Source of the DNA: Solirubrobacterales bacterium
GTDB taxonomy: Bacteria; Actinomycetota; Thermoleophilia; Solirubrobacterales; 70-9
Direction: 5' to 3'
Assembly: GCA_009379895.1 (NCBI GenBank)
Contig: WHSW01000004.1
Location: 1-55,234 of the forward strand
Length of the DNA: 55,234 nucleotides
Both the position numbers and the translations under genes were made by a program. Positions 4,151 to 7,141 of this stretch are shown piece by piece (the first letter of the stretch is position 1; each line of letters opens with the position of its first letter). A model generated the notes under the pieces. It worked only from the letters and a program-made list of their open reading frames with translations, made no database searches and was not told the origin of the DNA.

Positions 4151-4211
4151 GCCCCTGATTGTCCCCCCTCGCGCCGCTTCTCAAGCAGCCCCGCGTGGCC
4201 TACACTTGATC

Positions 4212-4568
4212 GGCTGGCTATGCGGTCGCGGGAGGTGTGCCTCTCGAGGAAAGTCCGGACACCGAAGGGCGCGGGCGGTGGGTGAATCCCACCCGGGGAA
4301 ACCCGCGGGAAAGTGCCACAGAAACACACGGCCGATGGCGCGCCAGTCACGTGAGCGCGCACAGGTAAAGGTGAAAGGGTGCGGTAAGAGCGCACCGGCG
4401 TCGCGGCGACGCGGCGGCCAGGCAAACCCCGCCCGGTGCAAGGCCAAGCAGGATCGTTGACCCGGCCCGGCGAGATCCAGGTGGGCCGCAGGGCGAAAGC
4501 CCCGCCGAGACCCAGGTCCCGGCGAGACGGATGACCGCGCAAGACAGAATCCGGCTTACCGGCCAGCT
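4212..4568 (+). ncRNA. rnpB: RNase P RNA, bacterial class A
   Basis: The catalytic RNA subunit that trims tRNA 5' leaders. The 5' conserved core GAGGAAAGTCCGGAC (4237-4251) and the matching 3' core ACAGAATCCGGCTTA (4544-4558) are both present. The 5' GCTGGC and 3' GCCAGC ends pair as helix P1. Internal landmarks include GGTAAAGGTGAAAGGGTGCGGTAAGAG and CCAGGCAAACCCC-type runs characteristic of type A. The length of about 357 nt is normal for high-GC actinobacteria. End positions are set by P1 and may be off by a few bases. A strong hairpin terminator follows within 5 nt. Confidence 0.95.
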
Positions 4569-4572
4569 AAGG

Positions 4573-4603
4573 AAGGGGCCCCGGCAACGGGGCCTCTTCT
4601 ATT
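4573..4603 (+). terminator. rnpB terminator
   Basis: An 11-bp stem (4573-4583 with 4588-4598, one G-U pair) is closed by a GCAA tetraloop and followed by CTATT. This is an intrinsic terminator immediately after the RNase P RNA. The convergent SDR gene ends 14 bp further on, so it may act in both directions. Confidence 0.85.
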
Positions 4604-4616
4604 GGCCCGGGCGGGC

Positions 4617-5441
4617 TCACGGCCCGTCGCCGGATTCGATCCGACGCTTCCAGTGCCGCTGGCGGCGCCGTGCGTCGCGCATCCACACCGGCATGATCCG
4701 CGCGCTGAGGCCGGGCAGCGCGTCGAAGAGGCGCACGAACGCGCCGCGCCACCTGGGGATCGTGAGCACCACGCGCGGGCGGTCGAGCAGCGCGACGACC
4801 CGATCGGCGACGTCCTCGGGCCGCAGCAGAACCCCGGAGAACGACGGCGCCGCGTCGGGGTCGTCGAGGCGGTCGTGGAGCATGGGAGTCCAGACCCCGT
4901 CGGGGCAGACGGCCGAGAGCCGGACCCCGCGCGAGCCCGAGCGGCGCAGGTCGGCCAGCGCGCCGAGCGTGAACGCCATCGCGCCGTGCTTGGTCGCCGC
5001 GTACAGCGCCTCGCCCGGCGGCGCGCCGAGCCCGGCCAGCGAGACGACGTTGATCACGTGACCGCGATCGAGCGGGCGCATCAGCTCGAGCGCCGCGAGC
5101 GTGCCGTTGATCGTGCCCATCGCGTTGACCTCGAACAGGGTTCGCCGAAGCGCGTCGTCGTGCTCCCAGACGTGGCCGGTGACCAGCAGCCCGGCGTTGT
5201 TGACCCAGACCGCGAGCGGGCCGGCGCGCTCCGCCGCGTCGGCCGCCGCGGCGCGGCACGCCGCGGCGTCGCGAACGTCGAGCGCCGACGCCCAGGCGCG
5301 AGCGCCGATCCGTCGCGCGGCCGCCTCGGCCGCCTCGGCGTCGACGTCGGTGACGTTGACCGCGAGCCCGCGCCGGGCGAGGCCGCGGGCGATCTCGAAG
5401 CCGAGTCCCCGCGCCGCCCCGGTGACGACCGCGGCGCTCAC
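4617..5441 (-). CDS. short-chain dehydrogenase/reductase (SDR)
   Basis: A 274-residue classical SDR of unknown substrate. It has the nucleotide-binding motif TGAARGLG near the N-terminus, NNAG after strand 4, a serine in NVVSLAG, and the catalytic YAATK pair, so the Ser-Tyr-Lys site is complete. Asp in NVTDVDAEAA after beta-2 suggests NAD(H) preference. The C-terminus has an aromatic/arginine-rich tail (RWRGAFVRLFDAL and later RRRQRHWKRR), often seen in membrane-associated SDRs that act on lipids; this is only suggestive. GTG at 5441 starts the Rossmann fold directly. The gene diverges from the riboswitch-controlled RlpA-like gene. Confidence 0.85.
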   Translation of the reverse strand: MSAAVVTGAARGLGFEIARGLARRGLAVNVTDVDAEAAEAAARRIGARAWASALDVRDAAACRAAAADAAERAGPLAVWVNNAGLLVTGHVWEHDDALRRTLFEVNAMGTINGTLAALELMRPLDRGHVINVVSLAGLGAPPGEALYAATKHGAMAFTLGALADLRRSGSRGVRLSAVCPDGVWTPMLHDRLDDPDAAPSFSGVLLRPEDVADRVVALLDRPRVVLTIPRWRGAFVRLFDALPGLSARIMPVWMRDARRRQRHWKRRIESGDGP

Positions 5442-5529
5442 CGCTCCACGCTCGCGCTTGGCGCCGAGGCACGGCTCTCCTGGCCTCGCTCCGCGCTCAC
5501 CGGGCGATCCTATGCCTCTGTTAATCTGG

Positions 5530-5691
5530 CGCGCGCACCGCTGAGTCCTCGCCACATATGCGAGGAGCGGGGGACCCACCGAGGGGGATCTATCTGCCTC
5601 GGCTTCGGGGCGAATCGCCGGCATCCGCCGCGTAGCGCCATCTCTTTCGGCGCGAGCCCGTCAGCTAACCCCGCAAGCGCCGAAAGAGATG
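5530..5691 (+). promoter_or_regulatory. c-di-AMP riboswitch (ydaO/yuaA class)
   Basis: The leader contains the hallmark segments of the c-di-AMP aptamer in order: GCTGAGTCC (5539-5547), GGAGCGGGGGACCCA (5564-5578), GGGGCGAATCG (5607-5617) and CCCGTCAGCTAACCCCG (5657-5673). Local helices CCTCGC/GCGAGG and CCGAGG/CCTCGG also form. The last conserved segment is enclosed by a perfect 15-bp helix (5639-5653 with 5677-5691) that contains the bases just before the next gene and its ATG. Ligand-stabilised closure would be expected to block translation. This class is known to sit before cell-wall hydrolase genes in actinobacteria. A TAATCT -10-like element lies at 5522-5527. Confidence 0.88.
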
Positions 5692-6483
5692 AACGAACCC
5701 CCGCGCCGCGCTGCGGCAAACCACAACCGAGATCGCCGAGGTCGTCCCCGCCGTGCGCCGAGCCTCGCCGAGCGGCCCGACCGGATCGCGCTCTGGGCGG
5801 TGGTGCTCGCGGTGGTCGCGATGATCGCCGGGGCGGCGAGCGCCCGCGCCGGCATCGGCGGCGTCGCCGCCGGGTCCGGCAGTGATCGCGGTGGGCCCGA
5901 CAGCGCGAGCTCGGCCGGCATCGCGAACTCGGCCGGCCTCGGCGCCGGTGCCGATGCCTCGGGCTGCCTGGACACCGAGTTCGGTCGTCGCACCCTCCAG
6001 GTCGGTGACTGCGGCGACGATGTCGCGACCCTGAACTGGATCCTGAGGTCCGACTATCGCGAGGCGCCGCTCGCCGACAGCTTCGCGGACGGGACCGAGG
6101 CCGCGGTCGCGAGGTTTCAGAGCGACGCGGACCTCCCGCCCGACGGGGTCGTCGACGAGACGACCAGCCGGGCGCTGGTCCGCGACATGTCGAGGCAGCG
6201 GGCCACCTGGTACGGCCCGGGGCTCTACGGCAACCCGCTCGCCTGCGGCGGCACGCTCAGGCGCGCAACGGTCGGCGTCGCCCACAAGACGCTGCCCTGC
6301 GGCTCGAAGGTGGTCATCCGTTACAAGGGCCACTACGTGCGCACCCGGGTGCTCGACCGCGGGCCCTTCTCGCGTGGCCTTCGATGGGACCTCACCCAGG
6401 CCGCCGCCGACCGGGTCGGGCTCGAGGCCGACGGCGCCGGCAAGGTCCGCGTCGCCTCGATCCCCAAGCCCAGGAAGCGGTAG
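5689..6483 (+). CDS. membrane-anchored peptidoglycan-binding / RlpA-like double-psi barrel protein
   Basis: A 264-residue envelope protein probably acting in cell-wall remodelling. An Arg-rich cytoplasmic N-terminus is followed by one hydrophobic segment at about 33-52 (signal anchor or uncleaved signal). A PG_binding_1-type domain spans about 93-165 (LQVGDCGDDVATLNWIL ... DGTEAAVARFQ). An RlpA/expansin-like double-psi beta-barrel spans about 172-260 (ATWYGPGLYGNPLACGGTL ... VRVLDRGPF). The barrel keeps the aspartate in LDRGPF that lytic RlpA enzymes use. ATG at 5689 is the first start and lies inside the terminal helix of the riboswitch. Regulation by c-di-AMP links it to turgor and cell-wall homeostasis. 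The substrate is not shown by the sequence. Confidence 0.88.
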   Translation: MNEPPRRAAANHNRDRRGRPRRAPSLAERPDRIALWAVVLAVVAMIAGAASARAGIGGVAAGSGSDRGGPDSASSAGIANSAGLGAGADASGCLDTEFGRRTLQVGDCGDDVATLNWILRSDYREAPLADSFADGTEAAVARFQSDADLPPDGVVDETTSRALVRDMSRQRATWYGPGLYGNPLACGGTLRRATVGVAHKTLPCGSKVVIRYKGHYVRTRVLDRGPFSRGLRWDLTQAAADRVGLEADGAGKVRVASIPKPRKR

Positions 6484-6574
6484 GGCCCCGGGCCCCCGGC
6501 TCCCGGAGCCCCGGCGGGCGGGACCGCGGGGCCCGCGGTCCGCAACCCGGGACCGCGGCGCCGCGGCGGCGAAC

Positions 6575-7141
6575 CTAGGCCGCCGAGGGCAGCACCGAGG
6601 TGTCGCCCTGGTCCTGGGGCAGCGCCGCCGCATTGGCGATCAGGCTCTGGAACTCGTTCATCGCCAGATGGGCGACCGCCTCGAGCATCTCCTCGTCGGT
6701 CCAATCGTGCTCCCGCGCCTCCTCGGCGAGGTGCTGGGCCGGGCGCCCGTCGGTGGCGATCAGGGCCTCGAGGAAGGCGAGCAGCGATTCCTCCCTGGGG
6801 TTGGAGGACTTGAAGCTGCGCGCGAGCGAGATCTCGTCGAGGCCGAGGCCCGCGGCGCGCGCCGTCTTCGCGTGCTGGGCGATCGAGTAGGGATCGCCGC
6901 GGCGCTCCGCGATCGCGAGCCCGATCCGCTCGCGCGTGGCCTGGGGAAGCGACCCGCCGCGCAGCTCGTGGCGCATGCGCGCGTAGGAGCGCAGTGCGGC
7001 CGGCGCCCCGGCGAGGACCCCGATGAACTTCGAGACGGAACCACCGGCGCTCTGCACGCCCTTGAGGATCTTGACGCTGCCGTTGGGGGCGGTGAGCTCG
7101 TCGTGGATGTGAAAGCGGCTGATGTCTGTCTTTGCGGTCAC
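6575..7141 (-). CDS. carboxymuconolactone decarboxylase/AhpD-like fold protein lacking cysteines
   Basis: A 188-residue helical protein. The segment YSIAQHAKTARAAGLGLDEI aligns by eye with the CMD/AhpD signature (CEYCvaaHtxxARxxGLsxeEI), but both CXXC cysteines are replaced (S and A), and the whole protein has no cysteine. It therefore cannot be an AhpD-type disulfide reductase; members of this kind keep the His and may use other chemistry. A second helical half (EEMLEAVAHLAMNEFQSLI) resembles the oligomerisation helices of the family. The start is GTG at 7141. A perfect palindrome 30 bp upstream suggests regulation by a dimeric repressor. Substrate unknown. Confidence 0.75.
   Translation of the reverse strand: MTAKTDISRFHIHDELTAPNGSVKILKGVQSAGGSVSKFIGVLAGAPAALRSYARMRHELRGGSLPQATRERIGLAIAERRGDPYSIAQHAKTARAAGLGLDEISLARSFKSSNPREESLLAFLEALIATDGRPAQHLAEEAREHDWTDEEMLEAVAHLAMNEFQSLIANAAALPQDQGDTSVLPSAA

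What the first reader, a model, noticed from the sequence alone, without database searches (positions are those of the whole stretch)
5639..5691. c-di-AMP riboswitch whose final helix contains the start codon
The last conserved aptamer segment (CCCGTCAGCTAACCCCG) is enclosed by a perfect 15-bp helix pairing 5639-5653 with 5677-5691; the right strand is the translation start region including the ATG. Known c-di-AMP riboswitches often act through a separate terminator. Here aptamer and expression platform appear fused, so ligand binding itself would be expected to hide the start of an RlpA-like cell-wall gene.
Basis: partly seen in the sequence, partly recalled or inferred. Interest (0 to 1): 0.75.

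Follow-up and report, generated by a model that had tools for sequence, protein, structure and literature searches.

The report
c-di-AMP riboswitch abutting its start codon
Upstream of a cell-wall gene in an actinobacterium sits a genuine c-di-AMP riboswitch whose built-in pseudoknot ends right at the gene's start codon, so binding the signal molecule should block translation directly; this is a known class working in a recently proposed way, with a start-codon twist that recurs in its relatives.

Summary
In detail: Rfam RF00379 (c-di-AMP) matches 5529-5693 at 70.7 bits, and 5639-5653/5677-5691 is a perfect 15-bp match, the only one of its kind in the window. The reading needs correcting. The 15-bp helix is not the aptamer's last helix: it re-uses the P6 and P1 3' strands and so excludes the aptamer fold. 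What fits the aptamer, and what evolution conserves, is a 7-bp pseudoknot between the P6 loop (5642-5648, CUCUUUC) and the tail (5682-5688, GAAAGAG), ending directly before AUG 5689. Across 150 riboswitches from 61 related genomes this core covaries (0/500 shuffles); the other eight pairs do not, and no other member exceeds 11 bp. The pseudoknot and RBS-docking OFF mechanism are already described for this class. Less familiar is a two-mode layout: pseudoknots carrying GGAG sit 4-13 nt before the start, whereas GAAAGAG ones often abut it (0-3 nt) without a canonical Shine-Dalgarno; in a second gene of this genome the AUG itself lies in the pseudoknot. Best reading: translational OFF switch by start-site occlusion. 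The 15-bp hairpin is a genome-specific extra that might hide the start even without ligand.

The parts
5529..5693 (+). c-di-AMP (ydaO/yuaA) riboswitch aptamer, full-length model match 1-134
   Evidence: Rfam RF00379, 70.7 bits, E 1.9e-14
5539..5542 (+). P1 5' strand (CGCU)
   Evidence: Rfam consensus alignment
5676..5679 (+). P1 3' strand (AGCG); 5677-5679 are also in the right arm of the 15-bp helix, so the two compete
   Evidence: Rfam consensus alignment; sequence
5635..5639 (+). P6-type hairpin 5' strand (GCGCC); identical in sequence to 5677-5681
   Evidence: alignment; sequence
5649..5653 (+). P6-type hairpin 3' strand (GGCGC), also part of the left arm of the 15-bp helix
   Evidence: alignment; sequence
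5642..5648 (+). Pseudoknot 5' strand, P6 loop CUCUUUC (pairing extends to A5640-U5641 in this genome)
   Evidence: Covariation over 150 homologues; homologous to the CUCCUUCG loop of the 4QLM RNA (PMC5393176)
5682..5688 (+). Pseudoknot 3' strand, tail GAAAGAG, ends directly before the start codon
   Evidence: Covariation; start-gap survey
5639..5653 (+). Left arm of the perfect 15-bp alternative hairpin
   Evidence: unique among 150 homologues
5677..5691 (+). Right arm of the 15-bp alternative hairpin, includes ATG 5689-5691
5689..6483 (+). Regulated gene, 264 aa: N-terminal hydrophobic segment, PG_binding_1 and DPBB_1 (RlpA-like) domains
   Evidence: Pfam; first in-frame start, next one at 5800 inside the hydrophobic segment; N-terminus conserved in the same-genus orthologue

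Best explanation
A c-di-AMP riboswitch controls translation of a peptidoglycan-acting (RlpA-like) protein. When c-di-AMP binds, the aptamer (P1 to P6) is held together and its P6 loop (5642-5648) docks with the tail (5682-5688) as a 7-bp pseudoknot, extended by two A-U pairs into the AUG in this genome. This puts the start codon and the bases just upstream inside structure and blocks the 30S subunit, so the gene is OFF. Without ligand the docking should be weaker and the start site more open. Shown here: family membership, gene identity, a conserved and covarying pseudoknot, the start position relative to it, absence of a terminator-like site. Inferred: ligand binding by this RNA, OFF polarity, translational rather than transcriptional effect, and the ligand-free state.
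For: RF00379 at 70.7 bits. 150 homologues: pseudoknot cells 80% paired, all 7 pairs with two-sided changes, e.g. U-A 84 / C-G 28 / U-G 24 at one pair, 0/500 shuffles as high; a pairing-blind anchoring agrees (88.7% paired against 84.7 +- 0.4% permuted), and covariation is confined to the 7-bp core. The first start codon lies -3 to +20 nt from the pseudoknot 3' end in 120 of 137 (median 6). GGAG-bearing pseudoknots keep Shine-Dalgarno spacing (gap <=3 in 1 of 30), AGAG-type ones abut the start in 37 of 94 (Fisher p 7e-5, not corrected for relatedness). No terminator-like site at the locus; T5 runs within 120 nt in only 5 of 150. Orthologue G001 has the same loop, GAAAGAG and an ATG 2 nt on, with conserved N-terminus RRAA..HNR. 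The C. glutamicum nlpC riboswitch lowers reporter protein without changing transcript level (PMC9960051).
Against: The isolated leader is predicted to prefer the nested 15-bp hairpin over the P6-containing fold by about 16 kcal/mol before crediting the pseudoknot (about -9.7) and ligand, so the start may be hidden with or without ligand. Energy models here do not score the pseudoknot or ligand. Streptomyces rpfA, of the same class, is reported to act by transcription termination (PMC10117811). The pseudoknot is general to the aptamer class, so its conservation alone does not prove ribosome occlusion.
Confidence: 0.75

Rival explanations
1. The 15-bp hairpin is the ligand-free structure and keeps the gene constitutively OFF (or leaky-off); the riboswitch in this species is locked or biased, and ligand merely exchanges one start-hiding structure for a shorter one, possibly even opening the site slightly.
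For: The minimum-free-energy fold holds the 15-bp helix; enforcing P6 costs 16.4 kcal/mol in the leader; the window is the most extreme of 145 homologues for this gap (16.7 against median 2.5, orthologues 3.6-7.1). 5677-5681 copies the P6 5' strand, so the tail could branch-migrate into P6 from the loop.
Against: Not conserved: 1 of 150 has 15 bp, orthologues 7-9 bp; no covariation in the extra pairs. Cotranscriptional folding forms P6 before the tail exists. Nested energies ignore pseudoknot and ligand.
Confidence: 0.15
2. Ligand binding acts on transcription (Rho-dependent or unusual termination in the early coding region), and the closeness of the start codon is incidental.
For: The S. coelicolor rpfA riboswitch, same class and similar target, is reported to give c-di-AMP-dependent termination in vitro (PMC10117811; PMC9960051).
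Against: No terminator-like site at 5380-6700, almost no T-runs downstream in 150 homologues, start codons clustered next to the pseudoknot.
Confidence: 0.07
3. The pseudoknot is only a structural brace of the aptamer and the gene starts elsewhere or is regulated in another way such as mRNA stability.
For: The loop-tail pseudoknot occurs across the class, including the crystallised 4QLM RNA (PMC5393176).
Against: GGAG-type pseudoknots keep canonical spacing to the start, which a mere brace would not need; no other in-frame start between the stop at 5542 and 5800.
Confidence: 0.03

Closest known systems
c-di-AMP riboswitch RF00379 (ydaO/yuaA/kimA leader)
   Same: Full-length covariance match, core CCCGTCAGCTAACCCCG, P1, P6-type hairpin, loop-tail pseudoknot
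   Different: Pseudoknot 3' strand is GAAAGAG directly before AUG rather than followed by a terminator (as reported for B. subtilis ydaO)
C. glutamicum nlpC (cg2402) c-di-AMP riboswitch, PMC9960051
   Same: Actinobacterial, cell-wall gene, no terminator, proposed loop-to-start-region pseudoknot, translational OFF
   Different: There a CTCC is proposed to pair with GGAG of the RBS; here there is no canonical Shine-Dalgarno and the pseudoknot abuts and extends into the start codon
4QLM/4QLN ydaO RNA (RNA-Puzzle 12, PMC5393176)
   Same: Homologous loop CUCCUUCG and tail CGAAGGAG (alignment); pseudoknot described as having many base pairs and being stable
   Different: Tail holds AAGGAG; only 8 bp, no extension competing with P6
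S. coelicolor rpfA c-di-AMP riboswitch (PMC10117811)
   Same: Same class, peptidoglycan hydrolase target, no canonical terminator
   Different: Reported to act on transcription termination
Docking and direct-occlusion riboswitches (preQ1-III, cobalamin env8, SAM-II; PMC10907184)
   Same: Ligand favours a pseudoknot or kissing helix that hides the ribosome-binding region
   Different: Unrelated aptamers; the RBS rather than the start codon is described as occluded

Membership tests
c-di-AMP riboswitch RF00379 | Covariance-model match above the curated gathering score | tested here: met
   70.7 against 38 bits, model positions 1-134 complete
c-di-AMP riboswitch RF00379 | Conserved 3' core (CCCGUCAGCUAACC.CGC) and P1/P6 helices | tested here: met
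   Exact core upstream of 5674; alignment
c-di-AMP riboswitch RF00379 | P6-loop to 3'-tail pseudoknot | tested here: met
   5642-5648/5682-5688, with covariation over 150 homologues
c-di-AMP riboswitch RF00379 | Binds c-di-AMP at two sites | not testable with these tools
   needs in-line probing or calorimetry
Translational c-di-AMP riboswitch of the C. glutamicum nlpC type | No intrinsic terminator between aptamer and gene | tested here: met
   0 terminator-like sites; T5 runs downstream in 5 of 150 homologues
Translational c-di-AMP riboswitch of the C. glutamicum nlpC type | Pseudoknot strand contains the Shine-Dalgarno GGAG | tested here: not met
   Tail is GAAAGAG ending at the AUG; GGAG-ending strands occur in 30 of 124 scored homologues
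Translational c-di-AMP riboswitch of the C. glutamicum nlpC type | Protein, not transcript, falls with c-di-AMP | not testable with these tools
   needs reporter and RT-qPCR
   No excess pairing at offsets -1 to -3 and 7 to 11; orthologues have 7-9 bp

The most novel reading that the evidence does not exclude
Solirubrobacterales use two layouts of the c-di-AMP riboswitch platform: one hides a Shine-Dalgarno inside the aptamer pseudoknot, the other has no canonical Shine-Dalgarno and places the start codon itself against or inside the pseudoknot, as here and, with an unrelated pairing (GCCCAU/AUGGGC), at a transglycosylase gene of the same genus. Start-codon docking without a Shine-Dalgarno would be a new expression-platform variant for this class.
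Probability: 0.45. Interest if true: 0.5.

Novelty: new variant of a known kind. Interest (0 to 1): 0.4.

Why it matters
In the papers found, translational control by c-di-AMP riboswitches rests on one experimental case. The order-wide data show that start sites are tied to the pseudoknot, predict which genes are controlled by hiding a Shine-Dalgarno and which by hiding the start codon, and give a clean test of whether a riboswitch can silence a gene that lacks a Shine-Dalgarno. The regulon (RlpA-like, M23, transglycosylase, CAP proteins) ties c-di-AMP to cell-wall remodelling in a little-studied actinobacterial group.

Tried and rejected
The 15-bp helix as the aptamer's final helix: rejected, it conflicts with P1 and P6 and is not conserved. 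An intrinsic terminator platform: none found. A start further downstream: the next in-frame start is at 5800 inside the hydrophobic segment, and the orthologue's N-terminus aligns from its own ATG next to GAAAGAG. Own 16S for the anti-Shine-Dalgarno: not in this assembly; related genomes carry GGATCACCTCCTTTCT. MAFFT left the tail ungapped, so register shifts lower the counts; a motif-anchored count was added. Papers on the 2013 discovery, the crystal structures and one rpfA study were not held. Start choice in the survey uses an open-frame and GC3 rule and is approximate.

Full report
OBSERVATION. The two arms 5639-5653 and 5677-5691 are exact reverse complements and the right arm ends with ATG 5689-5691. 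No other perfect 15-bp inverted repeat with a loop under 60 nt exists in the window; 20 simulated windows held one in total. Rfam finds RF00379, c-di-AMP riboswitch, at 5529-5693 (70.7 bits, gathering score 38, E 1.9e-14). The gene at 5689-6483 has PG_binding_1 and DPBB_1 domains. The organism belongs to or near the Solirubrobacterales: the nearest named hit is a Solirubrobacterales MAG.

ANATOMY. The Rfam alignment places P1 at 5539-5542/5676-5679 and the last hairpin (called P6 here) at 5635-5639/5649-5653 with loop 5640-5648. The 15-bp helix re-uses the P6 3' strand (5649-5653) and part of the P1 3' strand (5677-5679), so it cannot form together with the aptamer. The part that can is the loop-tail pairing 5640-5648/5682-5690: a pseudoknot of 9 bp in this genome, with 7 bp as its conserved core (CUCUUUC/GAAAGAG). 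The RNA crystallised as 4QLM (sequence in PMC5393176) has the homologous CUCCUUCG/CGAAGGAG pairing (alignment), and the RNA-Puzzles paper says its pseudoknot has many base pairs and is stable.

COMPARATIVE TEST. All 61 genomes searched carry RF00379, nine copies in this genome. From these, 150 distinct riboswitches were read. On a MAFFT alignment every one of the 7 pseudoknot pairs shows changes on both sides and 0 of 500 shuffles reach the observed values; the most telling pair is U-A in 84, C-G in 28 and U-G in 24. With the tail anchored by its purine motif without reference to the loop, pairing is 88.7% against 84.7 +- 0.4% after permutation. Position by position, clear excess over permutation is found within the 7-bp core (z 8.5, 4.3, 6.3). 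The positions that would pair with the start codon and those that invade P6 and P1 show none; one offset beyond the 15-bp helix (c=12) gives z 3.4 and is unexplained. The window is the only one of 150 with a 15-bp match; next are 11 and 10, orthologues 7-9. Shuffles do not remove relatedness, so these are not probabilities.

START CODON. 5689 is the first possible start after the in-frame stop at 5542; the next are 5800 and beyond, inside the hydrophobic segment. The same-genus orthologue has the same loop, the same GAAAGAG and an ATG two bases later, with a conserved N-terminus (RRAA..HNR and LAERPDR). In the survey the first start in the best frame lies from -3 to +20 nt of the pseudoknot in 120 of 137 cases, median 6. 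When the tail strand ends in GGAG the gap is at least 4 nt in 29 of 30, mostly 6-8; when it does not, 37 of 94 start within 3 nt. In a cruder classification, 45 leaders have the start within 3 nt of the pseudoknot or overlapping it, and 38 of these have no canonical Shine-Dalgarno tetramer at normal spacing; of 75 with a gap of 4-20 nt, 58 have one overlapping the pseudoknot.

A SECOND CASE IN THE SAME GENUS. The riboswitch before a transglycosylase gene (L039/L177; RF00379 59 bits) pairs loop GCCCAU with AUGGGC, the start codon plus one codon; the same-genus relative (L178) keeps it, while genomes of another genus in the family (L179-L181) pair UCCUUC with GAAGGA touching or just before AUG. 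Pairing is kept although sequence and register changed. A 6-bp match is short and AUGGGC is also coding, so this is supporting rather than decisive.

ALTERNATIVE HAIRPIN. The leader's minimum-free-energy fold contains the 15-bp hairpin. Forcing P6 costs 16.4 kcal/mol, before crediting the pseudoknot (about -9.7) or ligand. Over 145 homologues this gap has median 2.5 and the window is the maximum, 16.7; orthologues 3.6-7.1. So the extra pairs look like a genome-specific strengthening that may bias this switch to OFF regardless of ligand. This is the main uncertainty about how well it switches.

MECHANISM. Best supported: ligand stabilises the aptamer and with it the docking of the P6 loop onto the tail, which closes the start site. 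Terminator-like sites are absent and T-runs rare downstream. Ligand binding, polarity and level of control are inferred from the class: C. glutamicum nlpC is a c-di-AMP OFF switch acting most likely on translation, with a proposed CTCC:GGAG pseudoknot (PMC9960051); a 2024 review places ydaO among docking riboswitches that occlude the RBS (PMC10907184); Streptomyces rpfA is reported to act on termination (PMC10117811).

NOVELTY. Class, pseudoknot and RBS-docking idea are known, so the fused aptamer and platform is not new. The abutting, Shine-Dalgarno-less layout and its split from the GGAG layout across an order were not found in the papers searched, a library that lacks most subscription journals. 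Hence: a variant of a known kind, moderate interest.

Noticed in passing
L039/L177 (G000:C90:2813-2984, minus strand) and L178: c-di-AMP riboswitch before a transglycosylase gene whose loop GCCCAU pairs with AUGGGC, i.e. the start codon itself is in the pseudoknot; relatives use UCCUUC/GAAGGA instead.
   Followed up: partly
L038 (G000:C609:7062-7216): c-di-AMP riboswitch before an M23 peptidase gene with only a short P6 loop and no evident loop-tail pseudoknot.
   Followed up: no
whole genome G000, L031-L039: Nine c-di-AMP riboswitches; downstream genes with Pfam hits are peptidoglycan-type or secreted: transglycosylase-like (2), M23 (2), CAP, RlpA-like. Two had no Pfam hit and one was not scanned.
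   Followed up: partly
window 4210-4574; L041 757-1124; L042 1-328: An RNase P RNA gene lies upstream of this riboswitch in the window and in two orthologous loci; in the window an SDR-like gene on the other strand lies between them.
   Followed up: no
window 5677-5681 and 5635-5639: The bases after P1 (GCGCC) copy the P6 5' strand, so the tail could displace it by branch migration; this is what lengthens the pairing to 15 bp.
   Followed up: partly
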